NCBI RefSeq assembly: GCF_902859805.1
Contig: NZ_CADIKC010000001.1
Location: 1,426,001-1,490,000 of the forward strand
DNA: 64,000 nt
Origin: Paraburkholderia sediminicola
GTDB lineage: Bacteria; Pseudomonadota; Gammaproteobacteria; Burkholderiales; Burkholderiaceae
Reading direction: 5' to 3'
The position numbers were made by a program, and so were the translations under genes. Below are positions 3,883-21,446 of the stretch, one piece after another (position 1 is the stretch's first letter; the number at the start of each line of letters is the position of its first letter). Under the pieces are notes generated by a model, which saw only the letters and a program-made list of their open reading frames with translations, searched no databases and was not told the DNA's origin.

Positions 3883-4147
3883 GTCCCCACTTCACATCCC
3901 GTTCTCGCATCCCGTTCTCGCGTCGCCATTCTTGTGCGACCAGACATCGCATTCGCATGGCCGGCGGCCCATCCAGCCGCCATGCGTATCGCATCGCCGG
4001 CTTCGACTCTCACCGCATTCGTTCCCCTCGCCGCTCAAGTTTGCAGGCAGTCTGCCGTTATCGCCATTGGACGGAGCGCCATCTGGCTCCCACGCGACCT
4101 TGGGCGATCTCCTCACGAAGGGGCGCAAAACGAATCGGAAACTGTAC

Positions 4148-5857: not shown

Positions 5858-5863
5858 CCGGCT

Positions 5864-7564: not shown

Positions 7565-7657
7565 CGGCTCGCGTAGCGACCTGTGCATCGGATGGCCCTT
7601 CTTCCCGTGGACGAAGCTCCCGCGTCGCGGCCCACCCGTAATGGGCATGAGTTTGGA

Positions 7658-7816
7658 CTCACCAAACGGATCCGTGAACTGAACCGGATTGCCACCCACA
7701 TAAGCATACGCATTCGTCCGCCCACTTGCCCAGCCAACCGGATCTTCGCTGATGAACTTCGCGGTGTTCGGATCGTAATACGAGTGCCGAAAGTAATGCA
7801 GTCCCGTCCCGTCATT
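7658..7816 (-). pseudogene. Rhs-repeat core domain remnant
   Basis: A short minus-strand stretch reads GTGLHYFRHSYYDP, then FISEDPVGW, then YAYVGGNPVQFTDPFG. This is the conserved end of the Rhs/YD-repeat core just before the variable toxin tip. No start, no upstream YD repeats and no toxin or immunity gene can be found; the frame simply runs into the J-domain gene in antisense. It is therefore a decayed fragment of an Rhs element. The rest of the 430-base gap 7565-7994 holds only this relic and the terminator of the catabolic operon. Confidence 0.75.
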
Positions 7817-7894
7817 CTCCCGCTGAGGATGGGTGGGCGTCGCGAACCTACCGCGCGCTGGCCAACAAACTCTTCGATGCGTCCATACCCTCCC

Positions 7895-7932
7895 CCCAAA
7901 AAACAAAGGGCGCACCACCCAGTGCGCCCTTC
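7895..7932 (-). terminator. Intrinsic terminator of the catabolic operon
   Basis: On the minus strand, AAGGGCGCAC (from 7931) pairs with GTGCGCCCTT across a short loop, followed by a T-rich run TTTGTTTTTTGG. It lies 63 bases beyond the MFS stop codon and is the first strong terminator after the operon start at 21403. This supports a single long transcript. Confidence 0.8.
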
Positions 7933-7994
7933 GCCTTCCTGCCATTGCGGTACGACATCAACCGCCCACCAAACCCATCACACGCTAAGAGGCG

Positions 7995-9398
7995 TCAAGC
8001 CTCGAGCTGCTCCAGCACCTTCCCCTTGGTCTCAATCCCAAGAAAGTGCACCGCGATTGCCGCAATGAACGGCACAGCCGCGAGAATATAAAACGCCACT
8101 TCCAGATTGCCGCCGATCATCGTCTTCGACACGATGGCCGGCGCGAAGATCGCCGCTACCTTGAGCCACGCGCCGCCTACACCGCAGCCCATCGCACGGA
8201 TACTCGTCGGGTACAGTTCCGGCGTGTACACATAAGCCGTGATGAAACCGCAAGCAAGGAACCCAAGCGAGAAGGCGCAACACGTCGCGACCACATACAC
8301 CGACGAATTGTGGAACACACCCGCCAACAGCAACGACAACGCGCACGCCACGAACGAGAAATTGATGATCGGCTTACGCCCCACCTTGTCGACCAGCAAC
8401 GCACAGGTCAGCGAACCCACCACGCCCAGCACCGAAGCCGCCACCGCCAGATTCAACGCCAGTTGCAGCGGCGCGTGATATACCGTGCGATAGATCGTCG
8501 GCAGCCACGTCGACAGACCGTACTGAATGAAGCCGCACGTAATCCACAGCATCGCGACAGCCATCGTGCGTTTCAGATACGCCGGCCCAAACAGATCGCT
8601 CATGCGGCGCTTCGGATGGCGATTGGCCATCGCGTCGAACTCGGCCGCATTGGCAACCGGCGGAAGCGGACCTTTCACGGCGCGTTCGAAAGCATGCACT
8701 GCGGTATCGGCATCGGCCATCCGTTCGCGTTCGGCCAGCCAGCGCGGCGATTCCGGCACCAGTTTGCGCAGCACGAAGAACAGGATCAACGGCATGCCGC
8801 CGATGAAGTACATCGCCTGCCAGCCGAAACGCGGCACGATCCACGCGCCCAACGCGTTCGACGCAAGCAAGCCAACCGGAAAAACGATTTCATACAAGAG
8901 CACGAAACGTCCCCGGCCATGCGCACGGCTGATCTCGTTGATATAGGTCGCGGCCACTGGCAATTCGCCGCCGAGCCCCAAGCCTTGAATCACGCGCAAC
9001 ACGACAAACGCGGCGAAGGTCGGCGCGAAGCCGCACGCAATACTCGTAATGCCGATGATCCCCGAGCTCAACGCAATCGCCTTCACGCGGCCTTTGCGTT
9101 CCGCGTACCACGGGAACACGAACGCGCCGATCAACTGGCCGACCGAGCCGGAGCCGATCAGAAAGCCAATTTCCCACGGCGTCAGATGCCATTTCGCAAT
9201 CAGGATCGGCAGCGTGGCCGCGATTGCGATCACGTCGAAACCGTCGAAGAACGTCGCGAGACCGATTAGTATGCGCGCGCGCACCTGCATCGCATTCTTC
9301 GGCAAACGCTCGAGACGCGCGATGATCGAGCCCCGGGTCACAGGGCCTGAGACACCGGCGCTGCTGCGGTCCCCCATGGTGTTGTCGATGGTTCTCAT
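7995..9398 (-). CDS. MFS transporter, last gene of the catabolic operon
   Basis: A 467-residue major facilitator with 12 predicted membrane segments. The family loop between segments 2 and 3 reads WYAERKGRVKA, and a second copy in the other half reads DKVGRKP. RVIQGLGLGGELPVAATYINE is the sugar/organic-acid porter signature. ATG 9398 was chosen because GGACGG precedes it; an in-frame TTG 11 codons upstream is less likely. It starts 25 bases after the ferredoxin reductase gene, so it most likely imports the aromatic or organic-acid substrate of this pathway by proton symport. Confidence 0.85.
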   Translation of the reverse strand: MRTIDNTMGDRSSAGVSGPVTRGSIIARLERLPKNAMQVRARILIGLATFFDGFDVIAIAATLPILIAKWHLTPWEIGFLIGSGSVGQLIGAFVFPWYAERKGRVKAIALSSGIIGITSIACGFAPTFAAFVVLRVIQGLGLGGELPVAATYINEISRAHGRGRFVLLYEIVFPVGLLASNALGAWIVPRFGWQAMYFIGGMPLILFFVLRKLVPESPRWLAERERMADADTAVHAFERAVKGPLPPVANAAEFDAMANRHPKRRMSDLFGPAYLKRTMAVAMLWITCGFIQYGLSTWLPTIYRTVYHAPLQLALNLAVAASVLGVVGSLTCALLVDKVGRKPIINFSFVACALSLLLAGVFHNSSVYVVATCCAFSLGFLACGFITAYVYTPELYPTSIRAMGCGVGGAWLKVAAIFAPAIVSKTMIGGNLEVAFYILAAVPFIAAIAVHFLGIETKGKVLEQLEA

Positions 9399-9423
9399 GC
9401 CGTGGTGCCGTCCGTAGGTGTGG

Positions 9424-10689
9424 TTAGGCAAGCGCCGTTGAGGCGTCGGTCAGGGTGGCAAGGTCGATAGTGCGGCCCTGGTTCATCCATTTGCGCGACA
9501 GTTTCAGTTCGCGCGGCGTGTTGATGGCGATGACACCGCGAATCGCGCCGTCTTCCAGATGGAAAAGCGTGGCGCGTTTGCCCGGCAAATCGCCGCGTAC
9601 CGCGAGTTGCGCATCGCCCGGAATGTCGCCGAGGATTTGCAGATTGACGTCGTATTGATCGGACCAGAACCACGGAATGTCCGCGTACGGTTCGAAATTG
9701 CCGAGTAAGGCCTTTGCCGCCGAGATCGCCTGGTTCTGCGCGTTGGCCCACGATTCGAGCCGCACGCGGCGCTTCAACCAGGCACTCGGATGGTTCGCGA
9801 CGTCGCCGCAGGCGAAGATGCGCGGGTCATCGGTCGCGCCGAAATGATCGACGACAATGCCGTCTTCCACCTTGATACCCGCTGCTTCCGCCAGCGCCGT
9901 ATGCGGCGTCAGGCCGATGCCGGCGACCGCGAAATCGGCGTCCAAAGTGGAACCGTCAGCGAACGTTGCCCGAATACGGTTGGCATCGTTCGGATGATCC
10001 GCAATCGACACAAGTGATGCGTTCAAACGCACATCCACGCCATTCGCGCGATGCAGCTGCAACAGGAAATCCGACACCATCGGCGGCAACGAGCGGGCGC
10101 ACAGACGCGGCGTGCCCTCCACTACCGTCGCGTCCACACCGAGCTTGCGCGCCGTGGCTGCGACTTCGAGCCCGATCCACCCGCCCCCGACCACCAGCAC
10201 GCGCTTGCTTGCGCGCAGCCGTTCGCCGAGAACAACCGCTTCGTCGAGCGTACGCAGATAGGTGATGTGCGAGGTCCTCACCAGCGCGTCCGGCAAACGG
10301 CGCGCTGCGCCACCGGTTGCAATCACGAGGCGGTCGTATTGAACTTCGCGACCTGACTGCGTGCGCACGATGCGCTGTTCACGATCGATCGACGTCGCGC
10401 AATCGGGTTGCCATGCTTCCACGTTCAGCGCGTCGAAATCGTCAGGCTTCACGAGGCGCACGGTTTCAATATCGGCTTCACCTGAGAGCACGGCCTTCGA
10501 CAACGGCGGACGCTCGTACGGCAGATGAATCTCATCGGCGATCATCACGAGGCGGCCATCGAAGCCTTCCTTGCGCAACGTCTTCACAACCCAGCCCGCC
10601 GCCTGGCCGCCGCCGATCACGACGATCGTGCGCGGCGCTTCGAGTCCGGCGTGTGCAGCTTGTGCCTTTTCAGCAGCAGCGTCAGTCAT
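9424..10689 (-). CDS. Ferredoxin reductase of a Rieske oxygenase system
   Basis: A 421-residue FAD/NADH oxidoreductase of the BphA4/putidaredoxin-reductase class. It has VVIGGGQAAG for FAD near residue 24, LPYERPPLSK, VLVVGGGWIGLEVAA for NADH, and the second FAD motif IFACGDVA. The C-terminal reductase domain contains PWFWSDQYDVNLQILG, typical of dioxygenase reductases. It passes electrons from NADH to the Rieske ferredoxin encoded at the head of the operon. Its ATG overlaps the end of the extradiol dioxygenase gene by 8 bases (ATGACTGA). Confidence 0.88.
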   Translation of the reverse strand: MTDAAAEKAQAAHAGLEAPRTIVVIGGGQAAGWVVKTLRKEGFDGRLVMIADEIHLPYERPPLSKAVLSGEADIETVRLVKPDDFDALNVEAWQPDCATSIDREQRIVRTQSGREVQYDRLVIATGGAARRLPDALVRTSHITYLRTLDEAVVLGERLRASKRVLVVGGGWIGLEVAATARKLGVDATVVEGTPRLCARSLPPMVSDFLLQLHRANGVDVRLNASLVSIADHPNDANRIRATFADGSTLDADFAVAGIGLTPHTALAEAAGIKVEDGIVVDHFGATDDPRIFACGDVANHPSAWLKRRVRLESWANAQNQAISAAKALLGNFEPYADIPWFWSDQYDVNLQILGDIPGDAQLAVRGDLPGKRATLFHLEDGAIRGVIAINTPRELKLSRKWMNQGRTIDLATLTDASTALA

Positions 10690-11647
10690 TTTTCCGCTCC
10701 GTCATGAACTTGCCTTCCGGCGCCTTCGCGTTTTTCTGGCGACGCGTGTTGCCGTCGATACCGCCGTCGATCGCCCATTCGGCGAACACAGTCGGACCCG
10801 GTTCGAAATCGCGCGGCTGCCATTCGGGCGTGAGCTGGTCTTCGTCGGCGTAGTACTCGATCAGGCCGCCAGCCGGATTCTGGAAGTACCAGAAGTAGGC
10901 AGACGACACCGGATGACGCCCCGGGCCGAGCTGCGTATCCCAACCGCAACGGCTGATATGCATGCCGCCGCCGAACACTTCGTGGATATCGCGTACGGTG
11001 AACGCCACGTGATTCAGGCCGCGCTTACCGCCGGGCAACGCCAGCAGGAAAATGTCGTGGTGGCCGCCGTGCGGCGCGCAGCGCATGAACGCGCCGCGGC
11101 CTGGATAGCGGTCCGACATTTCGAAGCCAAGCAGTTCCTGGTAGAACTTTTCCTGTTCCGCGAGTTGATTCGTGAAAAACACGACGTGACCCACTTCAAC
11201 CGGTTCAGCGCGCTCATAAATTGGCGACGGTTGATCGACGCGCAACGTTTGGCCCCACACGTTCGAAGGCGACCCGTGAATATCCAAAGCACGCTTGCGA
11301 GTCACTTCAACGCGAATCGCCATGCCGTTCGGATCGATACAACCCACAGCGTCTTCCGTTTCGAAGTGGCCCGGCTGGCCGGCAAAGCGGCCGCGCAGTT
11401 CGTCGAGTTCGGCTTTCGTTGCCACGCCCCACGTCACTTCACGCAACGTCGGACCTTCTTCGAATGCGGGCGGCAGCGACGGGTCGTTTGCATCGGCCAG
11501 GAGAATCGTGCAGCCGTTCAGCGTTTCGAAACGTGCTTGAGTTTCGTCGTGCGCGACTTCCTTCAAGCCCCAGTCCGCGAAAAAGCGGCGACAGGTGGCG
11601 AGATCCGTCACGCCGTAAATAATCTGTTCAATGCCGAGAATCGTCAT
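10682..11647 (-). CDS. Extradiol ring-cleavage dioxygenase (VOC / catechol 2,3-dioxygenase type)
   Basis: A 321-residue protein with two vicinal-oxygen-chelate domains. The C-terminal domain shows the iron ligands in the usual order: His in VGHVVFF, His in LNHVAF and Glu in GLIEYYAD. This fits type I extradiol enzymes of the catechol/biphenyl-diol group, which open a dihydroxylated ring next to the diol. ATG 11647 has an AAGAGG site. A charged tail of about 50 residues after the second domain is longer than usual. In the pathway it would act on the diol made by the Rieske system; the exact diol is unknown. Confidence 0.85.
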   Translation of the reverse strand: MTILGIEQIIYGVTDLATCRRFFADWGLKEVAHDETQARFETLNGCTILLADANDPSLPPAFEEGPTLREVTWGVATKAELDELRGRFAGQPGHFETEDAVGCIDPNGMAIRVEVTRKRALDIHGSPSNVWGQTLRVDQPSPIYERAEPVEVGHVVFFTNQLAEQEKFYQELLGFEMSDRYPGRGAFMRCAPHGGHHDIFLLALPGGKRGLNHVAFTVRDIHEVFGGGMHISRCGWDTQLGPGRHPVSSAYFWYFQNPAGGLIEYYADEDQLTPEWQPRDFEPGPTVFAEWAIDGGIDGNTRRQKNAKAPEGKFMTERKND

Positions 11648-11673
11648 AACGTGCCTCTTGCGTATTTCGCGTA

Positions 11674-13164
11674 TTAGTTCGCCCACGCCAGCGGCGCGTC
11701 GTTCAAGCCCCAGTAGAGGCTCTTCTGCTGCATGTATTCGCGGATGCCCAGTCGGCCTTTCTCGCGTCCCATACCACTCTCTTTCCAGCCGCTAAACGGC
11801 GTCGAGATCGAGAACAGCTTGTAGGTGTTGATCCATACCGTGCCGGTTTCGAGCGCACGGGCGATCCGGTAAGCGCGTTTGTAATCGCGCGTCCAGATAC
11901 CGGCGGCAAGGCCGAACACACTGTTGTTGGCTTCTTTCAGGAGCGATGCTTCGTCGTCGAACGGCATTGCGACCAGCACCGGGCCGAAGATTTCTTCCCG
12001 GCAGATGCGGGCGTCGTTCGTGAGGCCTTCGAGAATGGTCGGCTGGAAATAGGTGCCTGCTTCGCGGCCATCGCCGACCGGACGTTCGCCGCCACACAGC
12101 AAGCGGCCGCCTTCTTCCAGGCCCAATGCAACGTAACGTTCGACGGTTTCACGATGCGCGGCAGTGATCAGCGGACCCATCTGCGTTTCCGCACGCGACG
12201 GATCGCCGACGCGCAGCTTGCGTGCGCCTTCCGCGAGACGCTTCATAAACGCGTCGTAGATCGAGCGCTGCACGAACAGGCGCGAGCCCGCGATGCACGC
12301 TTCGCCCGATGAACTGAAAATGCCGTAGAGCACGCCGTTCACTGCGTGATCGAGATCGGCGTCATCGAACACGATGGTCGGCGATTTGCCGCCCAGTTCG
12401 AGCGAGACCGGCATCAGCTTGTCCGCAGCGATGCGCGCGATGCCGCGGCCCACTTCGGTGCCGCCCGTGAACGACACTTTCTTCACCAGCGGATGGCGCA
12501 CCAGCACGTCGCCGATCACCGAGCCTTTGCCCGGCACCACGCTGAGGACACCCTTGGGCACGCCGGCTTCTTCACAGATGCGCGCCAGCGCCAAAGAGAC
12601 TAAAGGTGTCACTTCAGCGGGCTTCAGTACCACGGCGTTCCCGCCTGCTAACGCCGGAGCCAGCTTCTGCGCGTCCGAAGCAATCGGCGAATTCCACGGC
12701 GTAATCGCCGCTATCACACCGATCGGCTCGTAAATGCTCATCGTCAGATAGTCGCCACGCGAGGGCGTTACCTCTTCATCGAGCGTTTCGAGGCACGCCG
12801 CGAAATAGCGGAAGGTGTTCGCAGCACTCGCCACCAGCACGCGCGTTTCGCCGATCGGTTTGCCGTTGTCGCGGCGCTGCAATTGCGCGAGCGCTTCGTG
12901 ACGCGCCATGATCAGATCGGCAATGCGGTACAGAATCAGCGCGCGTTGATGCGGCTTCAAACCCGACCAATCCGCGCGCCGCCATGCGATATCAGCGGCT
13001 TCTACAGCTTCGCGGGCGTCGTCTGCATTGGCCGTTGAGATTTCCATGTTGACCGACTGATCCGCCGGATACAGGCTTTTGTACGGGTTGCCACGCCCTT
13101 GCCGCCATTCGCCGCCGATGAAAATATCGCCGGTGGGCACGAGGCTGGTATCGAAGTGAGTCAT
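11674..13164 (-). CDS. NAD(P)-dependent aldehyde dehydrogenase
   Basis: A 496-residue class 1/2-type aldehyde dehydrogenase. It has the NAD-binding core FTGGTEVGR, the catalytic glutamate motif LELGGKSP, and the nucleophilic cysteine in a GEACIAGSRL segment, in place of the more common GQxC. The C-terminal EIFGPV and the SGWKESGMGRE substrate/oligomer region are also present. In meta-cleavage operons such enzymes oxidise a ring-fission semialdehyde or a smaller aldehyde released later. It sits 26 bases before the extradiol dioxygenase, which fits the oxidative branch. Confidence 0.85.
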   Translation of the reverse strand: MTHFDTSLVPTGDIFIGGEWRQGRGNPYKSLYPADQSVNMEISTANADDAREAVEAADIAWRRADWSGLKPHQRALILYRIADLIMARHEALAQLQRRDNGKPIGETRVLVASAANTFRYFAACLETLDEEVTPSRGDYLTMSIYEPIGVIAAITPWNSPIASDAQKLAPALAGGNAVVLKPAEVTPLVSLALARICEEAGVPKGVLSVVPGKGSVIGDVLVRHPLVKKVSFTGGTEVGRGIARIAADKLMPVSLELGGKSPTIVFDDADLDHAVNGVLYGIFSSSGEACIAGSRLFVQRSIYDAFMKRLAEGARKLRVGDPSRAETQMGPLITAAHRETVERYVALGLEEGGRLLCGGERPVGDGREAGTYFQPTILEGLTNDARICREEIFGPVLVAMPFDDEASLLKEANNSVFGLAAGIWTRDYKRAYRIARALETGTVWINTYKLFSISTPFSGWKESGMGREKGRLGIREYMQQKSLYWGLNDAPLAWAN

Positions 13165-13204
13165 GTCGGTCGTTCCAGATTGCTTCAGCTAATCAGCGAA
13201 TGTC

Positions 13205-14035
13205 TTAAATCACGCAGCGAGCCGCGCGATTGCGTAGCGCACGGATCGCGCTATACGCGGTCAGTGCGGACGTCTTGGGGTTGTCCGGCAGCGGCTTGCC
13301 GCACATCTCCAGCGACATCTCGCCGAAGGCGCCGCGTGCCACGATGCGATGCACGTTGCGCGACACGTTCGGGTCGGCGATCAGGCGGACCATGGTGTGG
13401 TCCAGACCCAGACCGGCCAGCGCGATCGTCGCGGCGACGTTGGCGTTCTTCGGATAGAGGCGCGCGGCTTCGCGCGCGCTGCCTTCAAAAATCACGGTCT
13501 CTTCGCTCAGCGTATGCAAATTGCAGAGCTGTTCCGCGGGCGTGCCGAGCCAGCCCGAAGGCGGCTTGCGCCCCGTGTACAGCACTTCGTCGAGGCCGCC
13601 GAGCTTGGCGGCGGACAACGCATCCACGCCACCGATCGCGCCCGACAACAGCGTCAACGTCGCGTCGCCTTCGTCCGCCGCAGCGGAGAGCGCGTCCAGC
13701 AGCATCATGTCGGACAGCGCGCCGATCGACGCGACCGCGCAATCCGTACCGGCTTTCAGCAAGGGCACCACGTGATCGACCAGGGCGCTGTGCCCCGCGC
13801 ATTCCAGCGCGAAATGCGGCTGGCTGCTCAACGCGGACACGGAAGCCACCACATCGACCGACGCGCCCACCACTTCACGCACCGACGCCATATGGCGCTC
13901 CGGCACGATCACATGCGACACGCGCACGGTCGGATCCGACTCGACCGAGCGATACACCGCCTGGCCGATCGCGCCGAAGCCGATCATCGCGACGTCGACG
14001 GGTGCGTGATGCCCCGCGTAGCCGGTCTCACGCAT
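13205..14035 (-). CDS. Aspartate-dehydrogenase-like protein (DUF108 family)
   Basis: A 276-residue protein with the Rossmann start [12 protein letters not shown] and the family segments [27 protein letters not shown] and [16 protein letters not shown], all typical of L-aspartate dehydrogenase (NadX/AspDH). These enzymes interconvert L-aspartate with iminoaspartate/oxaloacetate and ammonia using NAD(P). ATG 14035 overlaps the ThDP-enzyme stop by 8 bases, indicating translational coupling. No NAD-biosynthesis genes are nearby, so it probably acts in the catabolic route, perhaps on an imino- or oxo-acid intermediate. Confidence 0.8.
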
Positions 14036-15686
14036 GTTCCGGCTCCTTTTCCTTGACCGGCGGCCCTGCGAACGCCGTGGCGAACGAGCCGACTGACAGC
14101 ATGTCCACTTCAACCAGTACCGGACCGGTCTTCGCCATGCCTTCGCGGATGATCTCTTCGGCCTGGTCGAGCGATTTGATGCGGTAGTGCGTGAGCTTCA
14201 GGCTCTCGCAGAATTGCGCGAAATCCGGCTGGTGCAGATCGACGTAGCAGCGGCGGCCGCCGTATTGCGCGTCCTGAATGTTGCGGATCACGCCGTAGCA
14301 CTGGTCGTTCATCAGCACGATCATCACGTTGGCGTTTTCCTGCACGGCCGTTGCGAGTTCGCCGACGTTGACCATCAAGCCGCCATCGCCAACCAGGCAT
14401 ACGGTCTTCGCTGCATTGCCCGCGAGTGCCGCGCCGATACCCATCTGCATGCCCTGGCCGATACCGCCGCCGAGTGCATGAACGCCTGCGCGCGGCGAGA
14501 AGATCTTCAGCATGCGGTTGCCCCACGTGCTGTTCGAGATCGTGACGTCGCGCACCCAGTTGTAGTCGCGGCCCACGGCCTGTTGCAGGGCGTCGACGAG
14601 GCGTTTGTACGGGCCGAGACCTTTGCCCACATCCGCAACGGCGCTTTCGCGCGCGGCAGCCAAGTCTGATGCGAACGTCGGATCGACTTTCAGACGGCCT
14701 TCGAGCAGCGTCGCGAGTTCTTCGAGAACCGCCGATGCATCGCCGTGAATGAACATGTCGTTGCGATAGCCACGGTTGTCGGCGAGCGCGTCGGCGTCGA
14801 CGCGATACAGCGGTTGCGGCAGCGCCAGCTTGTACTTCAGCGTTTCATTGCCACGCAGACGCGAACCGACCACCACCAGCGCATCGCATGTCTTGTAGAA
14901 GCTTTCGACAGCGGCATGCACGTTGAACGCGCCGAGCGTCGCCGGATGATCTTCGGGCAGCACACCACGGCCCTGCACGCTGGTCACCACACCGAAGCCC
15001 AAGGCCACGAGACGTTCAACCGCAGCACGTGCATGACGCGTACCGCCGCCGAGCCACAACAGCGGACGCTTCGCATTCGCCAGTTGATCCGCGAGTTGCA
15101 CAACACGCTGACTGCAATGCGTGAGCGTGGTGACGTGCGGCGCGGCCAGATCGGCGGGCCATTCGATTTCGGCGGCTTGAATGTCGATCGGAATTTCAAC
15201 GCTGACCGGACCGCTCGGCGCGGTTTGCGCGACACGCACGGCTTCGCGGATCGTCGGCAGTGCGGTTTCGACCGAGCGCACGCGGAACGCGGCCTTCGAG
15301 ATCGACGACAGCATCGACAATTGATCCGGTGCTTCGTGGATATACGCGAGGTCCTTGTCGAGGTATTCGGTTTCGATCTGGCCGGTGACGTGCAGCAACG
15401 CGGTGCCTGCGGTCAGCGCTTCGACCATCGCGCCGGCAGCATTACCTGCTGCAGTGCCCGTGCTGGTGAATGCAACACCGAGGCCGCCGGACACACGCGC
15501 CAGGCCATCAGCCATGTTCACCGCGCCCGCCTCGCCACGTGCGCCGACGTAGCGAATCTTGCCGCGGTTGTGGATCGCGTCGAGGATCGGCATGTTGTGG
15601 ATCGAGATCACGCCGAATGCGGTTTGAACGCCGCATTGCTCGAGAAAAGCGGCGATCAGTTCGCCAACGGTGGTTTTATTAGACAT
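14028..15686 (-). CDS. ThDP-dependent enzyme (acetolactate-synthase / benzoylformate-decarboxylase fold)
   Basis: A 552-residue three-domain thiamine-diphosphate enzyme. The N-terminal Pyr domain has the activating glutamate in [14 protein letters not shown] (E52), where the usual preceding His is Gly. A central domain follows from about residue 190, and the C-terminal PP domain has the ThDP/Mg motif [15 protein letters not shown] and then NDQCYG. Such enzymes decarboxylate or ligate 2-oxo acids. ATG 15686 has a GGAGG site and overlaps the upstream SDR stop by 8 bases. The substrate is unknown; a 2-oxo acid from ring fission is a reasonable guess. Confidence 0.82.
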
Positions 15687-16476
15687 GTCGTGCAACGCCT
15701 CCAGAAACATCGATATGACTGCCCGTCGTATAGGACGACAGCGTCGTAGCCAGATAAAAGAGCGCTTGAGCGGCTTCTTCGGGTTTGCCGAAGCGGCCCA
15801 GCGGAATGTTTTTCTTGCGCGCCAGTTCGGCGGTCCAGTCTTCCCAGCTCTGGCCCGGCTGCGCTTCTTTCGCGTAACGGCGGCGCCATTGACCCGATTC
15901 GACGATGCCGATCAGAATCGAATTCACGCGAATGCGTTGCGGCGCGAGTTCCACCGCGAGCGATTTGATGAGGCTCAGCACGCCGGCGCGTGCCGACGAA
16001 GTCGCCACCATGTGCGGTTCGGGTTGCAGGGCGAGCAGCGAGTTCACGCAGACCACAGCCGGGCTTGATGCGTCGCGCAGCATCGGCAGGAACGCGCGGG
16101 TCGGGCGGATCACGCTGAAGTACTTCAGGTCGAGTTCTTCGCGCCAGGCGTCGTCGGTGGTGTCGGTAAAAGTCGACACGCGCCCCTGGCCTGCGTTGTT
16201 CACCAGCATGTCAGTGCGGCCGAAACGCGCTTGCACCGCTTGCGCGAACGCTGCGACTTCGTCTGCGTCGAGCACGTCGCAGGTTTGCGCCAGCAATTGC
16301 GCTTGCGGAAACTGCGTCTTCAGCGAGGCTTCCGCTTGCGCGAGACGTTCGCTGTCGCGTCCGCAGATCGCAACCGAGGCGCCTGCTCGCAAAAACAGTT
16401 CGGCAGTCGCGAGGCCGATGCCGGACGAGCCGCCCGTCACCACCGCTACCTGTCCGGTCAAGTCGATTTGAATCAT
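15679..16476 (-). CDS. SDR-family protein lacking the YxxxK catalytic pair
   Basis: A 265-residue short-chain dehydrogenase/reductase fold with the cofactor motif TGGSSGIG, the structural NNAG motif and a C-terminal PLGRFGKPEE segment. Where classical members carry YxxxK, this protein reads HMVATSSARAG, so neither Tyr nor Lys is in place. The upstream Ser (VCVNSLLAL) is kept. It may still bind NAD(P) but use another chemistry or a non-redox role. Its ATG overlaps the IclR stop in an ATGA arrangement, so it is translationally coupled to the regulator. Confidence 0.8.
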   Translation of the reverse strand: MIQIDLTGQVAVVTGGSSGIGLATAELFLRAGASVAICGRDSERLAQAEASLKTQFPQAQLLAQTCDVLDADEVAAFAQAVQARFGRTDMLVNNAGQGRVSTFTDTTDDAWREELDLKYFSVIRPTRAFLPMLRDASSPAVVCVNSLLALQPEPHMVATSSARAGVLSLIKSLAVELAPQRIRVNSILIGIVESGQWRRRYAKEAQPGQSWEDWTAELARKKNIPLGRFGKPEEAAQALFYLATTLSSYTTGSHIDVSGGVARHV

Positions 16477-17375
16477 TTGAGCCCCAGTGCCTTAAAGTAT
16501 TTCGCGCCCGAGTTCGAGCTGCCCGTCGGCCGATAGTTGAGCCGCTGCGAGAGTTCGTCAGCCGCGCGGCGGACCTTGTCGATCAGGCCGCTATCGAGCA
16601 GCGATGCATCGATCTCGTGGCGCGGAATCGTCGTCGTAATCACGGCGACGATGCGGCCCGTGTCGTTGCGCACCGGCGCGCTCACCACCGAAATGCCGCG
16701 TTCGAACGACGACTCGCTGATCGCGAAGCCGCGCCTGGCGTCGTCGCGAATGCGTTCGTACAGATCGTCGATGGTGGCCGGCGTTTGTTTCGTGAAGCGC
16801 TCGAGTTCCGGCTCGGGATAGAGCTTTTTCAGGTCGTCGAGCGTCATGTCACCCATCAGCACCTGACCATGCGTTGTCGCGTGGGCCGGCAGGCGCGTAC
16901 CGACATTCACCTTCACCGAACTGAAAATCGGCGCATGGCTTTGTGCTTTGGCCACGAACACCACATCACGGCCGTCGCGAATCACGATGTGGCTGGTAAG
17001 GCCAGTGTCGTTACGCAGCGCTTCGATGATCGGCAAACCAAGGTCGGTCAATTCAAGCGAGCTCAGATATTCGAAACCGAGTCGCAGCACCGCGACGCCG
17101 AGGCGATAGTTGCGGTCTTTATCGGCACGCTCGAGAAAGCCGAGTGATTCGAGCGTTTGCAGCAGACGGAACACCGTCGTGCGGGGAATCTTCAGGCGCT
17201 TCGATAATTCCGGTGCGCCGAGAACCGGCTCGCGTGGCGAGAACTCCGTCAGAATCTTCAGACCGCGTTCCAGACCTGGCACGCGATAGCTGATATCGCT
17301 GCCTGTGTCTGCGTCGTTGCGGTCGTCGTCCGCGTCGCGCTCGGCGCTAACCATGTCATGCGTATCGGACGTCAT
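16473..17375 (-). CDS. IclR-family regulator inside the catabolic operon
   Basis: A 300-residue regulator with an N-terminal winged helix (LGAPELSKRLKIPRTTVFRLLQTL) and a C-terminal effector-binding domain whose family signature appears as ERGISVVSAPVRN. An acidic, Asp-rich N-terminal extension precedes the fold. IclR proteins bind short palindromes and respond to aromatic or small organic acids. It begins immediately before the stop region of the hydrolase gene and is closely similar to the second IclR at 22923-23894. It probably controls its own operon through the palindrome at 21427-21446. Confidence 0.88.
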   Translation of the reverse strand: MTSDTHDMVSAERDADDDRNDADTGSDISYRVPGLERGLKILTEFSPREPVLGAPELSKRLKIPRTTVFRLLQTLESLGFLERADKDRNYRLGVAVLRLGFEYLSSLELTDLGLPIIEALRNDTGLTSHIVIRDGRDVVFVAKAQSHAPIFSSVKVNVGTRLPAHATTHGQVLMGDMTLDDLKKLYPEPELERFTKQTPATIDDLYERIRDDARRGFAISESSFERGISVVSAPVRNDTGRIVAVITTTIPRHEIDASLLDSGLIDKVRRAADELSQRLNYRPTGSSNSGAKYFKALGLK

Positions 17376-18266
17376 TCATTGGCTCCGTTGTCCGTCGCTT
17401 ACGCGGCAGAACGTGTCGATGATCGCGGTATACGCGGCGGGTGCTTCGATATAACCGGCGTGCCCGGCGCGCGGCACGACCAGCAGTTTGGTGCCCGCGG
17501 CCAGTACGAGTCGCTCGCAGGCTTCGGGGGGCGTAATGGTGTCCTCGGCACCGACCGCGACGTTGACGCGGCCTGTGTAGCGCGCGAGATCGCTGGTGAG
17601 ATCGGCGTTGGCGAGCAGATGCGTCGCTTGCGCGTAGCCGTGCGGGATCACGCGCGACATGTTCCAGCGCACCCATGCGCGCGCTTCGTCGCTCGCGTGG
17701 GTGGACAACATATTGGTGCTGCGTTTTTCCGCGAGACCTTGCGGGCCGAGTTCGTTGATCATGGCGAGACGCTGATCGCGTTTTGTTTCGCGCACTTCAG
17801 CGGATGCCGCGCCATAACCACCAGCAGGCGACAACAACAGCAAACCAGCCACGCGCTGCGGATTCGTCACAGCAAACGCACCCGCGATGATCGCGCCGAG
17901 CGAGTGGCCCAGCAGCACGCAGCGTTCAATGCTGAGCGCGTCGAGCCATTCCTTCAATACAGTGGCGTAGTCGCTTGCAGCGGGCGAATCGGCTTCTACG
18001 GGTGTCGATGCGCCATACCCCGGCGCATCCCACGCCAGTACACGGCGCGTCTCGCCCAGCACTTCAAACTGCTGCACCCACGAAGCCGCGCCCGAACCGA
18101 TACCGTGAAGCAGCACCAAAGGCAGCGCTCCACTTTCGGCGCTATCCACATCGCGATAGCTGACCGCACGTTGCGATGCCAGCCAGATCTGCTGGGCCGG
18201 GAAACGCGCAAGGCGCGCTTCGAGCGTAGCGTTCTGATCGACGGTATCGGACGGGACTGCGGACAT
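17376..18266 (-). CDS. Alpha/beta hydrolase (meta-cleavage-product hydrolase-like)
   Basis: A 296-residue alpha/beta-hydrolase fold enzyme with oxyanion segment HGIGSG, nucleophile elbow LLGHSLGA, an acid residue in VAVGAEDTITPP and the terminal catalytic His in PRAGHAGYIEAP. In extradiol pathways, MhpC/BphD-type enzymes of this size hydrolyse the C-C bond of the ring-fission product. ATG 18266 follows GAAGGAAATC; a TTG further upstream is less likely. It lies 39 bases after the cupin gene and abuts the IclR gene with no gap. Confidence 0.83.
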   Translation of the reverse strand: MSAVPSDTVDQNATLEARLARFPAQQIWLASQRAVSYRDVDSAESGALPLVLLHGIGSGAASWVQQFEVLGETRRVLAWDAPGYGASTPVEADSPAASDYATVLKEWLDALSIERCVLLGHSLGAIIAGAFAVTNPQRVAGLLLLSPAGGYGAASAEVRETKRDQRLAMINELGPQGLAEKRSTNMLSTHASDEARAWVRWNMSRVIPHGYAQATHLLANADLTSDLARYTGRVNVAVGAEDTITPPEACERLVLAAGTKLLVVPRAGHAGYIEAPAAYTAIIDTFCRVSDGQRSQ

Positions 18267-18305
18267 GATTTCCTTCGTGGGTGTTTTCAAAGTGAACTTG
18301 AAGGC

Positions 18306-18833
18306 TTAGCGCTTCAGCTTGGCCAAAGGAGAATCCGGCGGATACGTCGGCGTAATCGGCTTGGCCGCACCGAGCATCACGCACATCAACGCGTCTTCTT
18401 CGCCGATATTCACTTCCGTGCGATACACACCCGGCGGCACCGAAATCAGATCGCGCTCGCCCAGCACGGCTTCCCACGTTTCGCCGTCTTTCTCGCAGAT
18501 CACCTTCATCTTGCCTCGCAGCACGAAGAAAATTTCTTCGACATCCATATGGATATGGCTCGGACCGATGTTGCCGGCCGGGATCACCATCGTCGAAAAC
18601 GTGAAGCCGCCTGCGGGCACCGTGTTCATGTCTTTCGCGACGCCCGTGCCGCCCGTGCCGACATAGCGCATTTGCGCGCGGCGATATTTGGGGTCGTAGT
18701 CGGCCTGGAACTTCAGCGCGTCCCAGTCATAGCGACGCGTTTCCAGGCGCGCGACGCGAGTGTCCAGCCATTGTGCAAAGCTCGCGTCCGCGGGTTGTTC
18801 CCACGATTTGCGTTCGAGTTCGGCGTCCGCCAT
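18306..18833 (-). CDS. Cupin-domain protein
   Basis: A 175-residue single cupin. The metal-site motif appears as GPSHIHMDVEEIFFVLRG, giving two His and a Glu in the first cupin box, and the second box is degenerate (PPGVYRTEVNIG). Small cupins of this type in aromatic operons include dioxygenases, decarboxylases and isomerases; sequence alone does not decide. ATG 18833 has an AAGGAG site. It lies 26 bases after the SDR and before the hydrolase, so it probably processes a pathway intermediate. Confidence 0.75.
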   Translation of the reverse strand: MADAELERKSWEQPADASFAQWLDTRVARLETRRYDWDALKFQADYDPKYRRAQMRYVGTGGTGVAKDMNTVPAGGFTFSTMVIPAGNIGPSHIHMDVEEIFFVLRGKMKVICEKDGETWEAVLGERDLISVPPGVYRTEVNIGEEDALMCVMLGAAKPITPTYPPDSPLAKLKR

Positions 18834-18859
18834 CTCTTTCTCCTTTCGATTCGACAAGA

Positions 18860-19636
18860 TCAATTCATCACGAAGCCGCCGTTGACCGGCAGCAATTGGC
18901 CAGTCACGAAGCGCGCGGCATCGGACAACAGGAACAGCACGGGCCCGGTAACGTCGTCGGGCACTTGTGCGCGCGTGAGCGCGCGGCCTTGCAGGTAATA
19001 CTGATGACGCTCGGCGGGCACGTAAGCGGTGGCCTCGACTTCGGTGAGACCTGGCGCGATGGCGTTGACCGTCACTTGATGTGCACCGAACTCACGCGCC
19101 AGCGAGCGGGTCATCGAAATCACCGCGCCCTTGCTGGCCACATACGCGAGCAGCTTCGGCGCGCCCCACATCGCGGTATCCGACGCGATGTTGACGATGC
19201 TGCCGCGGCCCGAGTCGCGCAGATACGGCAGCGCGGCGGTGCTCATCAGCCACGTGCCGCGCACGTTGACGTTCATCACGGCGTCCCACGTCTCGACCGA
19301 CAACTCGTCGGCGAACTTGCCGCCTGAGTTTGTGATCGCCGCGTTGTTGATCAACGCGTCGAGGCCACCGAGTTGCGTTACGGCCTGATCGGCGAATTGC
19401 TTGATGCTGACGGGGTCGGCGAGATCGAGCGGCAGATACGTCACTGCGTGGCCTTGCTCTACAAGGGACGCCGCGAGCGCCCGGCCTTCGTCATGCAGCA
19501 CATCACCGAACACGACTTGCGCACCGGCTTGCACCAGCGAGCGGACGAACGCCGCGCCGAGGCCGCGCGCGCCGCCCGTCACGAGGACGCGCCTGCCCTG
19601 GAGTGCAGCCAATGCCGGAGACGCTTCGTTATGCAT
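18860..19636 (-). CDS. Short-chain dehydrogenase/reductase (probable diol dehydrogenase)
   Basis: A 258-residue classical SDR with the cofactor motif TGGARGLG, the NNAA structural motif, the catalytic Ser in NIASDTAMWG and the YVASK active-site pair. The C terminus ends in the common VNGGFVMN. Its ATG overlaps the Rieske alpha-subunit stop by 8 bases (ATGCATAA), so it is translationally coupled to the oxygenase. That suggests it rearomatises the cis-diol or dehydrogenates the first hydroxylated product. Confidence 0.85.
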   Translation of the reverse strand: MHNEASPALAALQGRRVLVTGGARGLGAAFVRSLVQAGAQVVFGDVLHDEGRALAASLVEQGHAVTYLPLDLADPVSIKQFADQAVTQLGGLDALINNAAITNSGGKFADELSVETWDAVMNVNVRGTWLMSTAALPYLRDSGRGSIVNIASDTAMWGAPKLLAYVASKGAVISMTRSLAREFGAHQVTVNAIAPGLTEVEATAYVPAERHQYYLQGRALTRAQVPDDVTGPVLFLLSDAARFVTGQLLPVNGGFVMN

Positions 19637-20726
19637 GGCTGTGGCCTGCCGCTTCGGTTTGCGCAGTGCCGGCCTGAGCGGCTTGAGCGTGATAGGCATC
19701 CAGCTCAGCAAAATGCTGCTGCGCGCGCTGACGGAACATGCGGCGCACACGCGTCATGCCGACGTCGTGCTGATAGAGGAACTCGTGCTCGCGTGCATTC
19801 GGCGCCATGCTTTCGAGAACATAGCGGTCCTGTTCCAGCACGGCCCAGTGCAGACCTTCCAGACGGTTGCGATACATGAAGCGCCATGCGTCGCGCTGCC
19901 AGCCCGACACCTTGCGCGTACGCCAGAAGTAAACCTGGCAATTGTTTTCGTCGACCGGCGTAGCAAAGCCGATGATCCCGAAGTTGCCGCCCGGGCCGAA
20001 CTTCTTCTTGTACGGAATCGCGAGACGCATCCACAGCGCACCGGTTTCGCCCAGTTCGACCCAGTCGAAATTCACGTCGCGCTGGCCGACCTTTTCGAAC
20101 ATCAGGCCGGTTTCGGTCTTGCGCACGCGCATGTCGGCCTGCTTGTCGCCTTCGGCCATCGAGTGCGAGGTCGCATGCAGATACGCGCCGTGCATCGGGT
20201 CCATCACGTTGTCGATCGCGTACTGGTAATTGCACTTCCAGTTCGACATGCACAGGAAGTTCGCGTACTCGTCGCCCACCAGCTCTTCCGGCAGCACGAG
20301 CGGCGTGGGTTCTTTATGAGCGTCGTCGCCGAACCACAGGAAGATCGCGCCGGCATGCTCTTCAACCGGATACGACTTCACGCACTTCTGGCCTTCCAGC
20401 GGGCAGGCCGACACCGCCGGCACCTTGACGACCGTGCCGCCGCCGTCGATTTCAATGCCGTGATACCAGCACGCGACGCTGCCGCCGAGGTTCCAGCCGA
20501 GCGACAGACGCGCGCCACGGTGCGGGCAGCGGTCTTCGAGCGCGCGGACCTGGCCTTCCTTGTCGCGCCACAGCACGATCTGATCGCCGAGGCGCGTCAC
20601 GCCGACCGGCGCGTCGCCAACTTGCCAGCTCGGTGCAACGGGATACCAGTAATTGCGCAGACCTTTGTTCAGATACGACTGAATCGGATCGGCCGCGCTT
20701 TGAGTCGTTGTATTGGGGGACGTCAT
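19629..20726 (-). CDS. Rieske non-haem iron oxygenase, alpha subunit
   Basis: A 365-residue terminal oxygenase. The Rieske [2Fe-2S] ligands are in CPHRGARLS and, about 17 residues later, CWYHG. The mononuclear iron site reads NVMDPMHGAYLH, giving the Asp and two His of the facial triad. No beta-subunit gene is present, which fits the alpha-only class of carbazole, oxoquinoline and phenoxybenzoate oxygenases. ATG 20726 follows a GGAG site. It takes electrons from the adjacent ferredoxin and the reductase at 9424-10689. The substrate cannot be read from sequence. Confidence 0.88.
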   Translation of the reverse strand: MTSPNTTTQSAADPIQSYLNKGLRNYWYPVAPSWQVGDAPVGVTRLGDQIVLWRDKEGQVRALEDRCPHRGARLSLGWNLGGSVACWYHGIEIDGGGTVVKVPAVSACPLEGQKCVKSYPVEEHAGAIFLWFGDDAHKEPTPLVLPEELVGDEYANFLCMSNWKCNYQYAIDNVMDPMHGAYLHATSHSMAEGDKQADMRVRKTETGLMFEKVGQRDVNFDWVELGETGALWMRLAIPYKKKFGPGGNFGIIGFATPVDENNCQVYFWRTRKVSGWQRDAWRFMYRNRLEGLHWAVLEQDRYVLESMAPNAREHEFLYQHDVGMTRVRRMFRQRAQQHFAELDAYHAQAAQAGTAQTEAAGHSHA

Positions 20727-20775
20727 GAAGAGACTCCGGATGCGAAAGCGAAGAGACGTGTGCGGAAGAGCGCGC

Positions 20776-21087
20776 TTATTCAGCGAGCAGGCGGAATTCG
20801 GCGGCAAGGCGATCGGCATCCCACGTGTTGCCTTCCGGGGTGCGGAAACCCACGCGGTTCAAACCGTCGACGACTTCCTGCAACTCATTCGCGCCGGCTT
20901 CGAAAACTTTCTCGAGCGCATCGCCGAAGTCGTTTTCGTACTGGGTCGGCTCAGCCTTGCGCGTTTGCCAGATGAAGTTTTCGGTCTCACCCGGCTTTTC
21001 GATCACGCCCTTGCCGGCAACGTTGGTCGGCTGCGGCGCGAGCCACGGCTTCAGGAAGGGATTGAAGTTCACGATGTGTTCTGACAT
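20776..21087 (-). CDS. Small conserved protein between Rieske ferredoxin and oxygenase
   Basis: A 103-residue protein of unknown function. It begins with a proline-rich FNPFLKPWLAP segment, then a charged helical part (QYENDFGDALEKVFEAGANELQ) and a C-terminal VGFRTPEGNTWDADRLAAEFRLLAE stretch. That end resembles the recombinase-like helix-turn-helix annotation sometimes given to such proteins. It starts 1 base after the ferredoxin stop and ends 49 bases before the oxygenase, so it is made with both. It could aid assembly, electron transfer or regulation of the oxygenase. Confidence 0.7.
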   Translation of the reverse strand: MSEHIVNFNPFLKPWLAPQPTNVAGKGVIEKPGETENFIWQTRKAEPTQYENDFGDALEKVFEAGANELQEVVDGLNRVGFRTPEGNTWDADRLAAEFRLLAE

Positions 21088-21088
21088 G

Positions 21089-21403
21089 TCATTCCACCTT
21101 GATCTGGATTTCTTCGCCGGCGAGACGTACCGAGTACATCTTCAGGTCGCGGCCACCCGGCTCTTTCAGGCATTTGCCGGTCGGGATGTGGAACACGGCT
21201 TCGTGCAGCGGGCATTCGACGGTGTCGCCGTCGACAAAGCCCTGCGTCAGCAGCGCGTACGCATGGGGGCAGACGTTTTCCAGCGCGTACAGCGCATCGC
21301 CCACCTTGTAGATGCCGATTTCGGTGCCGTCGAGTTTGAACTCGAGCGGCGCGTCTTCGGACAGGTCGCCGGCATGGCCGGCGCAGCGCCATTGTTCAGT
21401 CAT
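21089..21403 (-). CDS. Rieske-type [2Fe-2S] ferredoxin
   Basis: A 104-residue soluble ferredoxin with the Rieske ligands in CPHAY and, about 20 residues later, CPLHEAVF. A glycine-rich ending matches dioxygenase ferredoxins such as BphA3. It is the first gene of the operon and carries a strong AGGAG ribosome site. It would shuttle electrons one at a time from the FAD reductase to the alpha subunit. The first ligand motif (CPHAYALLTQG) lacks the common CTHG wording but has the right Cys/His pair. Confidence 0.88.
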   Translation of the reverse strand: MTEQWRCAGHAGDLSEDAPLEFKLDGTEIGIYKVGDALYALENVCPHAYALLTQGFVDGDTVECPLHEAVFHIPTGKCLKEPGGRDLKMYSVRLAGEEIQIKVE

Positions 21404-21426: not shown

Positions 21427-21446
21427 ATGTTCCATATAAGGAACAT
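21427..21446. promoter_or_regulatory. Perfect palindrome, candidate IclR operator
   Basis: ATGTTCC and GGAACAT are perfect 7-base arms around a 6-base A/T centre. The site lies 24 bases upstream of the ferredoxin start and just downstream of the predicted -10 box, a position suited to blocking transcription. A lone GGAACAT half-site recurs at 21726-21732 before the porin gene. With two IclR genes in the cluster, one or both are the likely ligands. Confidence 0.6.

What the first reader, a model, noticed from the sequence alone, without database searches (positions are those of the whole stretch)
7995..21403. Apparently undescribed aromatic ring-hydroxylation and meta-cleavage operon with a ThDP plus aspartate-dehydrogenase module
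Fourteen minus-strand genes with gaps of 49 bases or less supply every step from import to C-C bond processing: MFS, Rieske ferredoxin, oxygenase and reductase, SDRs, cupin, extradiol dioxygenase, hydrolase, aldehyde dehydrogenase and IclR. The adjoining ThDP enzyme and AspDH-like protein are not part of the standard catechol, biphenyl or phenylpropionate pathways I know. They suggest a nitrogen-containing or 2-oxo-acid intermediate. I cannot assign a substrate.
Basis: partly seen in the sequence, partly recalled or inferred. Interest (0 to 1): 0.72.

Follow-up and report, generated by a model that had tools for sequence, protein, structure and literature searches.

The report
Kynurenic acid degradation operon, likely
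A 14-gene operon in a soil bacterium, found in the same or nearly the same order in many related bacteria, likely lets the cell break down kynurenic acid, a waste product of tryptophan, and would supply genes for a breakdown route that, as far as we could find, is known from its chemistry but has no genes assigned.

Summary
In detail: 14 minus-strand genes, gaps of at most 49 bases, all matching the named families. The cluster is no one-off. All 14 genes are collinear in 56 of 80 named genome loci, and its core recurs, reshuffled, in Klebsiella, Acinetobacter, alphaproteobacterial and Streptomyces records. I found no characterised operon with this content in the held papers. Best reading (pathway chemistry recalled, substrate untested): the classical kynurenic acid 'quinoline pathway'. 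The Rieske system and SDR1 would make the catechol, the VOC dioxygenase cleave it, SDR2 reduce the side chain, the ThDP enzyme decarboxylate, ALDH oxidise, the hydrolase and perhaps the cupin open the ring, and AspDH take the iminosuccinate. The formula balance closes exactly to iminosuccinate, glutarate and CO2. SDR2 has lost the YxxxK motif in 122 of 122 loci, which would fit a double-bond reductase; SDR1 keeps it in 115 of 115 and accompanies the oxygenase in 113 of 114. A small HTH_62 protein lies directly upstream of the oxygenase in 95 of 95 loci where both were detected. Against: no neighbouring gene identifies kynurenate, and in a Reyranella version AspDH and ALDH were not detected.

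The parts
7995..9398 (-). MFS transporter; predicted importer of an aromatic acid
   Evidence: Pfam MFS_1 and Sugar_tr; best NCBIfam TIGR00895 aromatic acid/H+ symport, 225 bits, below its cut-off of 419
9424..10689 (-). Ferredoxin reductase (FdR) for the Rieske system
   Evidence: Pyr_redox_2 and Reductase_C; HcaD 372.5 bits, below cut-off 450
10682..11647 (-). VOC extradiol dioxygenase; predicted 7,8-dihydroxykynurenate 8,8a-dioxygenase
   Evidence: Glyoxalase domain; His/His/Glu and GHHD motifs present (their meaning recalled); nearest solved chains 3b59 and homoprotocatechuate 2,3-dioxygenase
11674..13164 (-). Aldehyde dehydrogenase (ALDH); predicted to oxidise the 2-formylethyl side chain
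   Evidence: Aldedh 573 bits; Glu and Cys motifs
13205..14032 (-). Aspartate dehydrogenase (AspDH); predicted iminosuccinate/aspartate/oxaloacetate step
   Evidence: NF009826 535 bits, above cut-off 479; 2dc1 L-aspartate dehydrogenase 115 bits
14028..15686 (-). ThDP enzyme; predicted decarboxylase of the 2-oxo-acid side chain
   Evidence: NF005470 964 bits, cut-off 495; RGE and GDG..N motifs
15679..16476 (-). SDR2, short-chain dehydrogenase without YxxxK; predicted C=C (ene) reductase
   Evidence: NF005468 482 bits, cut-off 266; TxxxR or SxxxR in 122 of 122 loci; 3lf1 367 bits
16473..17375 (-). IclR-type regulator inside the operon
   Evidence: IclR_C and HTH_IclR; pcaR_pcaU 168 bits, below cut-off 285
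17376..18266 (-). Alpha/beta hydrolase (ABH); predicted to hydrolyse the lactam or a C-C bond
   Evidence: Abhydrolase_1 and _6; GHSLG motif; PcaD-like 106 bits, below cut-off 256
18306..18833 (-). Cupin of unknown activity, predicted metal-binding
   Evidence: Cupin_2; HxH...EE invariant in 8 of 8 aligned sequences; model of mean pLDDT 69.7 with mixed cupin matches
18860..19636 (-). SDR1, canonical SDR; predicted dihydrodiol dehydrogenase
   Evidence: YxxxK in 115 of 115 loci; present in 113 of 114 loci with the oxygenase
19629..20726 (-). Rieske oxygenase (RHO), VanA_C type; predicted kynurenate 7,8-hydroxylase
   Evidence: Rieske and VanA_C; Rieske and mononuclear iron motifs; nearest solved chains dicamba O-demethylase (91 bits), then phthalate-4,5-dioxygenase-like and carbazole oxygenases
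20776..21087 (-). HTH_62 (recombinase-like HTH) protein, associated with the oxygenase gene
   Evidence: PF20552 87 bits; one match in the genome; directly upstream of RHO in 95 of 95 loci with both; residues 1-43 at pLDDT below 50
21089..21403 (-). Rieske ferredoxin
   Evidence: Rieske domain; AndAb-like 83 bits, below cut-off 150; Rieske motif
21429..21444 (.). Palindrome GTTCCATATAAGGAAC, predicted operator
   Evidence: 1 match in the window, 0.05 expected; both arms conserved in at least 90% of 67 distinct intergenic regions
21844..22920 (+). Divergent porin, predicted outer-membrane entry
   Evidence: Porin_4; porin and ferredoxin genes divergent within 900 bases in 68 of the 123 loci scanned
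22923..23894 (-). Second IclR-type regulator
   Evidence: IclR_C and HTH_IclR; seen next to the porin in many of the loci

Best explanation
The 14 genes form a catabolic cluster beside a divergent porin, whose core is conserved across Proteobacteria and found reshuffled in one Streptomyces, and which likely imports kynurenic acid (4-hydroxyquinoline-2-carboxylate) and is predicted to degrade it to aspartate, glutarate and CO2. Predicted steps, each inferred from family and order: (1) MFS and porin import; (2) RHO with ferredoxin and reductase, and perhaps HTH_62, make the 7,8-dihydrodiol; (3) SDR1 re-aromatises it to 7,8-dihydroxykynurenate; (4) VOC cleaves C8-C8a, giving 5-(3-carboxy-3-oxopropenyl)-4,6-dihydroxypicolinate; (5) SDR2, which lacks the carbonyl-reductase motif, reduces the side-chain double bond; (6) the ThDP enzyme decarboxylates the 2-oxo acid; (7) ALDH oxidises the aldehyde to the carboxyethyl compound; (8) two hydrolytic steps, by the alpha/beta hydrolase and possibly the cupin, open the lactam and split the beta-keto bond into glutarate and iminosuccinate; (9) AspDH interconverts iminosuccinate with aspartate (or oxaloacetate and ammonia). 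IclR proteins are predicted to act at the conserved palindrome. Shown here: gene content, conservation, motifs and formula balance. Not shown: any substrate, any reaction, or that the 14 genes share one transcript.
For: Gene content and synteny. The formula balance closes: kynurenate plus the listed steps plus two waters gives iminosuccinate, glutarate and CO2 with nothing left over. SDR2 lacks YxxxK in 122 of 122 loci and SDR1 keeps it in 115 of 115, as a double-bond reductase and a dihydrodiol dehydrogenase would. SDR1 is present in 113 of 114 loci with RHO; the 4 loci that lack RHO without being cut by a contig end (L152, L153, L154, L159) also lack SDR1 and encode a FAD_binding_3 monooxygenase, as would be expected if a hydroxylated analogue such as xanthurenate enters at the same catechol. 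The core stays together when reshuffled in Acinetobacter, Klebsiella, Paracoccus, Pseudosulfitobacter, Nitratireductor, Novosphingobium and Streptomyces records. In A. baumannii, genes named hydrolase, AspDH, ALDH and acetolactate synthase and numbered in this order rise together with mucin (PMC5757984, passages; mapping inferred).
Against: No direct evidence of the substrate. Of 30 cluster genomes searched, 25 have tryptophan 2,3-dioxygenase and in only 1 of them (G405) is it near: 13 kb from the ThDP gene, with unrelated genes between, and paired with kynureninase, the anthranilate route; it occurs in 145 of 200 family genomes, so co-occurrence says nothing. AspDH and ALDH were not detected in the Reyranella cluster (L131), and AspDH is absent from the partial cluster L139. 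Nitratireductor has RHO, SDR1 and a FAD_binding_3 monooxygenase together, so the exchange is not clean. The Mo-hydroxylase next to the partial cluster on pNK84 is closest to 4-hydroxybenzoyl-CoA reductase (438 bits), quinoline 2-oxidoreductase being fourth (268 bits). The own genome has no CsiD glutarate hydroxylase and no CoA-transferase over the succinate-glutarate cut-off (best 525 of 750 bits). RHO is nearer to dicamba O-demethylase than to 2-oxoquinoline 8-monooxygenase (91 against 54 bits). The ThDP enzyme is nearest to an acetolactate synthase. Loss of YxxxK does not by itself prove ene reduction. No enzyme is firmly assigned to ring opening. A GH3 glycoside hydrolase adjoins the Novosphingobium version, which kynurenate does not explain.
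Confidence: 0.5

Rival explanations
1. The operon degrades a different N-heteroaromatic or bicyclic aromatic, for example another quinoline carboxylate or a plant glucoside aglycone, by the same chemical logic: oxygenation, meta-cleavage, reduction, ThDP decarboxylation, AspDH.
For: A ThDP heterocycle decarboxylase, a xanthine-oxidase-type enzyme, a Rieske oxygenase and an extradiol enzyme act together in lumichrome catabolism (PMC12746152, abstract, outline and passages); a Mo-hydroxylase adjoins the partial cluster of pNK84 and a GH3 enzyme the Novosphingobium cluster.
Against: AspDH asks for a ring that yields iminosuccinate or oxaloacetate; that of kynurenate does so with exact balance. 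The lum operon has an alpha/beta Rieske pair, a two-subunit ThDP enzyme and no aspartate enzyme named in the main text.
Confidence: 0.27
2. The substrate has no nitrogen; AspDH only supplies aspartate or oxaloacetate for NAD or central metabolism and the ThDP enzyme works as a ligase or hydrolase on a ring-fission product.
For: NadX-type aspartate dehydrogenases serve NAD biosynthesis elsewhere (recalled); AspDH was not detected in L131 and L139; the ThDP enzyme's nearest solved relative is an acetolactate synthase.
Against: AspDH stays with the catabolic genes through reshuffling in several genera, which a housekeeping role would not require.
Confidence: 0.15
3. The substrate is an aromatic amino acid relative: the AspDH-like enzyme deaminates it, the ThDP enzyme decarboxylates the aryl-pyruvate, ALDH gives the aryl-acetate, and the VOC enzyme cleaves the catechol.
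For: VOC matches the HpaD model best of NCBIfam and ALDH the HpaE model third.
Against: AspDH exceeds the cut-off of an aspartate dehydrogenase equivalog (535 against 479 bits) and aligns with L-aspartate dehydrogenase structures; HpaD (73 of 321) and HpaE (476 of 638) scores are below their cut-offs.
Confidence: 0.06

Closest known systems
Bacterial kynurenic acid (quinoline) pathway of the 1960s: EC 1.14.99.2, 1.3.1.18, 1.13.11.10 (recalled, no call)
   Same: Each step up to the carboxyethyl compound can be given one gene of the cluster by family; carbon and nitrogen balance closes
   Different: Known from enzymology; I found no gene assignment in the held library. The split into glutarate and iminosuccinate is my inference
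Lumichrome (lum) catabolic operon of Nocardioides simplex, PMC12746152
   Same: Combines ThDP decarboxylation, Rieske oxygenation and extradiol cleavage in catabolism of an N-heteroaromatic
   Different: Alpha/beta Rieske oxygenase, two-subunit ThDP enzyme, xanthine-oxidase-type enzyme; the words aspartate and dehydrogenase do not occur in the main text
Homoprotocatechuate (hpa) meta-cleavage pathway
   Same: Extradiol dioxygenase and aldehyde dehydrogenase of related families
   Different: Both below the HpaD and HpaE cut-offs; no isomerase, decarboxylase or aldolase of that pathway among the 14 proteins
Short-chain oxidoreductase Q9HYA2 (PDB 3lf1/3lf2), recalled as Pseudomonas aeruginosa PA3507 with an atypical catalytic centre
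   Same: Closest solved relative of SDR2, 367 bits over residues 4-264 of 265, with T and R at the YxxxK positions
   Different: Function not assigned, as far as I recall; the paper was not held
Aspartate dehydrogenase NF009826; PDB 2dc1
   Same: Member: 535 bits against cut-off 479
   Different: Sits in a catabolic operon rather than with NAD biosynthesis genes

Membership tests
NF009826 aspartate dehydrogenase | Score over curated cut-off, full length | tested here: met
   535.1 bits, cut-off 479, profile 1-273 of 273
NF005470 ThDP-binding protein and NF005468 SDR | Score over curated cut-off | tested here: met
   964 against 495 and 482 against 266 bits
Kynurenic acid (quinoline) pathway | A gene of fitting family for ring dihydroxylation, dihydrodiol dehydrogenase, extradiol cleavage, side-chain reduction, 2-oxo-acid decarboxylation and aldehyde oxidation | tested here: met
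   One candidate per step, by family only; the two SDR roles lean on the motif and co-occurrence
Kynurenic acid (quinoline) pathway | Acts on kynurenate and 7,8-dihydroxykynurenate | not testable with these tools
   No assay; no substrate-specific neighbour gene found
Kynurenic acid (quinoline) pathway | Products fit the enzymes present | tested here: inconclusive
   Formula balance exact, but glutarate use in the own genome not shown: no CsiD, best CoA-transferase below cut-off
Standard meta-cleavage pathways (bph, mhp, dmp) | Hydratase, aldolase and acetaldehyde dehydrogenase tail | tested here: not met
   None of the 14 proteins is assigned to the hydratase or aldolase families
Homoprotocatechuate pathway | HpaD and HpaE equivalogs | tested here: not met
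   73 of 321 bits and 476 of 638 bits
Classical SDR (for SDR2) | Catalytic YxxxK | tested here: not met
   TxxxR in 121 and SxxxR in 1 of 122 loci

The most novel reading that the evidence does not exclude
This operon is the complete gene set of the bacterial kynurenic acid pathway, whose enzymes have long lacked genes; it contains a new kind of tyrosine-less short-chain ene-reductase (SDR2), an accessory HTH_62 subunit that belongs to a whole class of Rieske oxygenases, and a dedicated aspartate dehydrogenase that recovers ring nitrogen as aspartate, and it is widespread in soil, plant-associated and human-associated bacteria that would thus remove a signalling metabolite of tryptophan.
Probability: 0.35. 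Interest if true: 0.8.

Novelty: new variant of a known kind. Interest (0 to 1): 0.6.

Why it matters
If the assignment is right, three or more enzyme activities known only from classical biochemistry (recalled) get genes at once, in a cluster carried by many Burkholderiales and present in Klebsiella and Acinetobacter records. Kynurenic acid is a host signalling metabolite (recalled), so bacteria that remove it would be of interest to microbiome and plant-microbe work. Even if the substrate differs, a conserved SDR without its catalytic tyrosine and an unexplained small protein tied to a Rieske oxygenase gene are concrete targets.

Tried and rejected
Rejected: standard catechol, biphenyl, phenylpropionate and homoprotocatechuate pathways (scores below cut-offs; no tail enzymes). 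Rejected as evidence: the tryptophan dioxygenase 13 kb from the ThDP gene of G405 (with kynureninase, and unrelated genes in between), and co-occurrence with tryptophan dioxygenase (145 of 200 family genomes have it). Rejected as specific support: the pNK84 Mo-hydroxylase; the CoA-transferase and acyl-CoA dehydrogenase near the Pseudosulfitobacter cluster, since neither passes a glutarate cut-off. Led nowhere: paper searches for PAO1 locus tags that I recalled as this cluster (one search listed one paper holding two of six tags, not opened), aspartate dehydrogenase with aromatic terms, kynurenate degradation genes; PADLOC for HTH_62; the cupin fold search; names of RHO homologues, generic where a name was given (120 of 2962 proteins listed). 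In the held library 'dihydroxykynuren' and 'bacteri' occur together in 5 papers, 4 of them listed, none with a title about degradation genes (listings only).
Full report
WHAT IS THERE. Searches list the ORFs; assign families. Fourteen minus-strand genes run from 21403 down to 7995 with gaps of at most 49 bases when the obvious methionine starts are taken: ferredoxin, HTH_62 protein, Rieske oxygenase (RHO), SDR1, cupin, alpha/beta hydrolase (ABH), IclR, SDR2, ThDP enzyme, AspDH, ALDH, VOC extradiol dioxygenase, ferredoxin reductase, MFS. AspDH, ThDP enzyme and SDR2 exceed the cut-offs of NCBIfam equivalogs (NF009826, NF005470, NF005468), so these proteins are catalogued, without a pathway. A divergent porin and a second IclR gene adjoin. 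The nearest named relative by the ThDP protein is Paraburkholderia aspalathi (100% over 552 residues).

CONSERVATION. A scan of genome contigs with a ThDP alignment gave at least 411 confirmed matches, of which the best 80 were kept. All 14 genes are collinear in 56 of 80, the eight genes SDR1 to ALDH in 73 of 80; some of the rest are cut by contig ends. In the GTDB family, 102 of 200 genomes have an AspDH match at E 0.001 or better and 45 of 200 exceed the cut-off. In the phylum sample 15 of 398 genomes exceed the ThDP cut-off; of 10 further regions fetched from these, 9 have AspDH in the stretch and the tenth contig ends before it. In plasmid records 29 match the ThDP protein; I looked at 12. 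Besides two from Caballeronia sp. NK8 (one full, one partial), versions were seen in Acinetobacter, Klebsiella, Paracoccus, Novosphingobium, Pseudosulfitobacter, Nitratireductor, Vibrio and Streptomyces; the Variovorax record has only the ThDP relative. That the genes persist together through reshuffling is the strongest sign that they, AspDH included, work together. An exception: AspDH and ALDH were not detected in the Reyranella locus L131.

TWO SHORT-CHAIN DEHYDROGENASES, TWO ROLES. Of 123 loci examined (11 loci numbered 37 or higher that were small, overlapping or unrelated, L162 and L055 among them, were left out beforehand, and L001-L036 were not used), SDR2 was found in 122; the positions of the catalytic tyrosine and lysine are T and R in 121, S and R in 1. 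SDR1 keeps YxxxK in 115 of 115. At least two genomes are in the set twice (L048/L074 and L051/L090 share contig lengths), and the loci are related, so these counts are not independent events. An alignment confirms the register, and the closest solved structure, 3lf1, shares the substitution; I recall it as a P. aeruginosa protein described as having an atypical catalytic centre, but the paper was not held. RHO is present in 114 loci, SDR1 in 113 of them; the exception is the partial cluster L139. Of 9 loci without RHO, 5 are cut by contig ends (L038, L072, L105, L127, L155). The other four (L152, L153, L154, L159) also lack SDR1 and carry a FAD_binding_3 monooxygenase (three of the four were compared with NCBIfam, where the nearest models are 3-hydroxybenzoate 6-hydroxylase and, for a second enzyme of L153, phenol 2-monooxygenase). 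Against a clean exchange, Nitratireductor (L161) has RHO, SDR1 and such a monooxygenase together. I conclude that SDR1 belongs with dihydroxylation and SDR2 with the steps after ring cleavage.

CHEMISTRY. The classical bacterial kynurenate pathway (recalled from KEGG and from work of the 1960s by Hayaishi, Taniuchi, Horibata, Behrman and Dagley; none of it read here) runs: kynurenate, 7,8-dihydrodiol, 7,8-dihydroxykynurenate, then 5-(3-carboxy-3-oxopropenyl)-, 5-(3-carboxy-3-oxopropyl)-, 5-(2-formylethyl)- and 5-(2-carboxyethyl)-4,6-dihydroxypicolinate. That needs a Rieske system, a dihydrodiol dehydrogenase, an extradiol enzyme, a double-bond reductase, a 2-oxo-acid decarboxylase and an aldehyde dehydrogenase, and the cluster has one candidate for each. 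I add an inference: two hydrolyses of the last compound give glutarate and iminosuccinate, the latter a substrate of AspDH. The formula balance closes with no remainder. A balance is a consistency check, not proof. The flavin monooxygenase versions would fit entry of xanthurenate (8-hydroxykynurenate) at the same catechol.

REGULATION AND COHERENCE. The palindrome GTTCCATATAAGGAAC at 21429-21444 occurs once in the window against 0.05 expected, and its arms are conserved in at least 90% of 67 distinct porin-ferredoxin intergenic regions (69 collected, the window's included). In A. baumannii, genes named alpha/beta hydrolase (A1S_0954), L-aspartate dehydrogenase (0956), betaine-aldehyde dehydrogenase (0957) and acetolactate synthase (0958) rise 2.2 to 3.7 fold with mucin (PMC5757984, passages). 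Their order matches L137; I did not verify the mapping by sequence. Mucin does not point to kynurenate. Co-transcription of the 14 genes was not tested.

HTH_62. The small protein is the only HTH_62 match in the genome. Of 115 loci with an RHO match, 95 have an HTH_62 match at E 1e-8; in 95 of 95 it lies directly upstream on the same strand, 17 to 319 bases between the matched stretches. In Paracoccus, Pseudosulfitobacter and Nitratireductor the annotated HTH_62 gene is separated from RHO by ABC transporter genes. The model gives a confident three-helix C-terminal part and a stretch of 43 residues of very low confidence at the N-terminus, although that stretch carries conserved positions in the longer homologues. 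It may be an oxygenase-binding accessory protein or a regulator; undecided.

AGAINST. No neighbour gene identifies kynurenate. Tryptophan dioxygenase is near the cluster in 1 of the 25 genomes that have it (30 searched), and weakly so; it is found in 145 of 200 genomes of the family. The pNK84 Mo-hydroxylase is not specific. CsiD is absent from the own genome and no CoA-transferase passes the succinate-glutarate cut-off. RHO's nearest solved relative is a demethylase. The GH3 gene beside the Novosphingobium version and the Reyranella cluster without detected AspDH and ALDH are unexplained. I put 0.5 on kynurenate or a very close analogue.

LITERATURE. Ten searches of the held open-licence library were used (one search was not run). 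No paper with this gene order or with genes for kynurenate degradation appeared in their listings; subscription journals are mostly not held, so a description elsewhere is possible. The nearest analogue is the lumichrome pathway (PMC12746152, abstract, outline and passages). PMC10729968 was seen in one passage and does not assign kynurenate-degrading genes there.

Noticed in passing
window 3932-7564 (+): An Hsp70-family protein (HSP70 465 bits) followed 6 bases later by a 566-aa protein with an N-terminal DnaJ match below the gathering score (24.2 of 27.8 bits): a possible chaperone pair outside the operon.
   Followed up: no
window 6920-7945 (-): A 341-aa ORF with no Pfam match; a part near its N-terminus reads like the end of an Rhs core (resemblance recalled). 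It overlaps the gene on the other strand and is probably a remnant plus spurious frame.
   Followed up: no
G000:C8:284158-284940 (L055): The genome holds a second aspartate dehydrogenase (225 bits to NF009826, 46% identical) near aldehyde dehydrogenase matches, without the rest of the cluster.
   Followed up: partly
L139 (Caballeronia sp. NK8 pNK84): A paralogous partial cluster: ferredoxin, HTH_62, RHO, ThDP, VOC followed by a three-subunit xanthine-dehydrogenase-family enzyme, while pNK83 of the same strain carries the full cluster.
   Followed up: partly
L153 (G405): An unnamed-phylum-mate version without RHO or SDR1 has both a phenol 2-monooxygenase-type enzyme (969 bits) and a second FAD_binding_3 monooxygenase, with TRAP transporter genes.
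   Followed up: partly
L141 and L164 (Novosphingobium resinovorum): A TonB receptor and a GH3 glycoside hydrolase directly precede the ThDP-AspDH-ALDH genes, hinting at a glycosylated substrate there.
   Followed up: no
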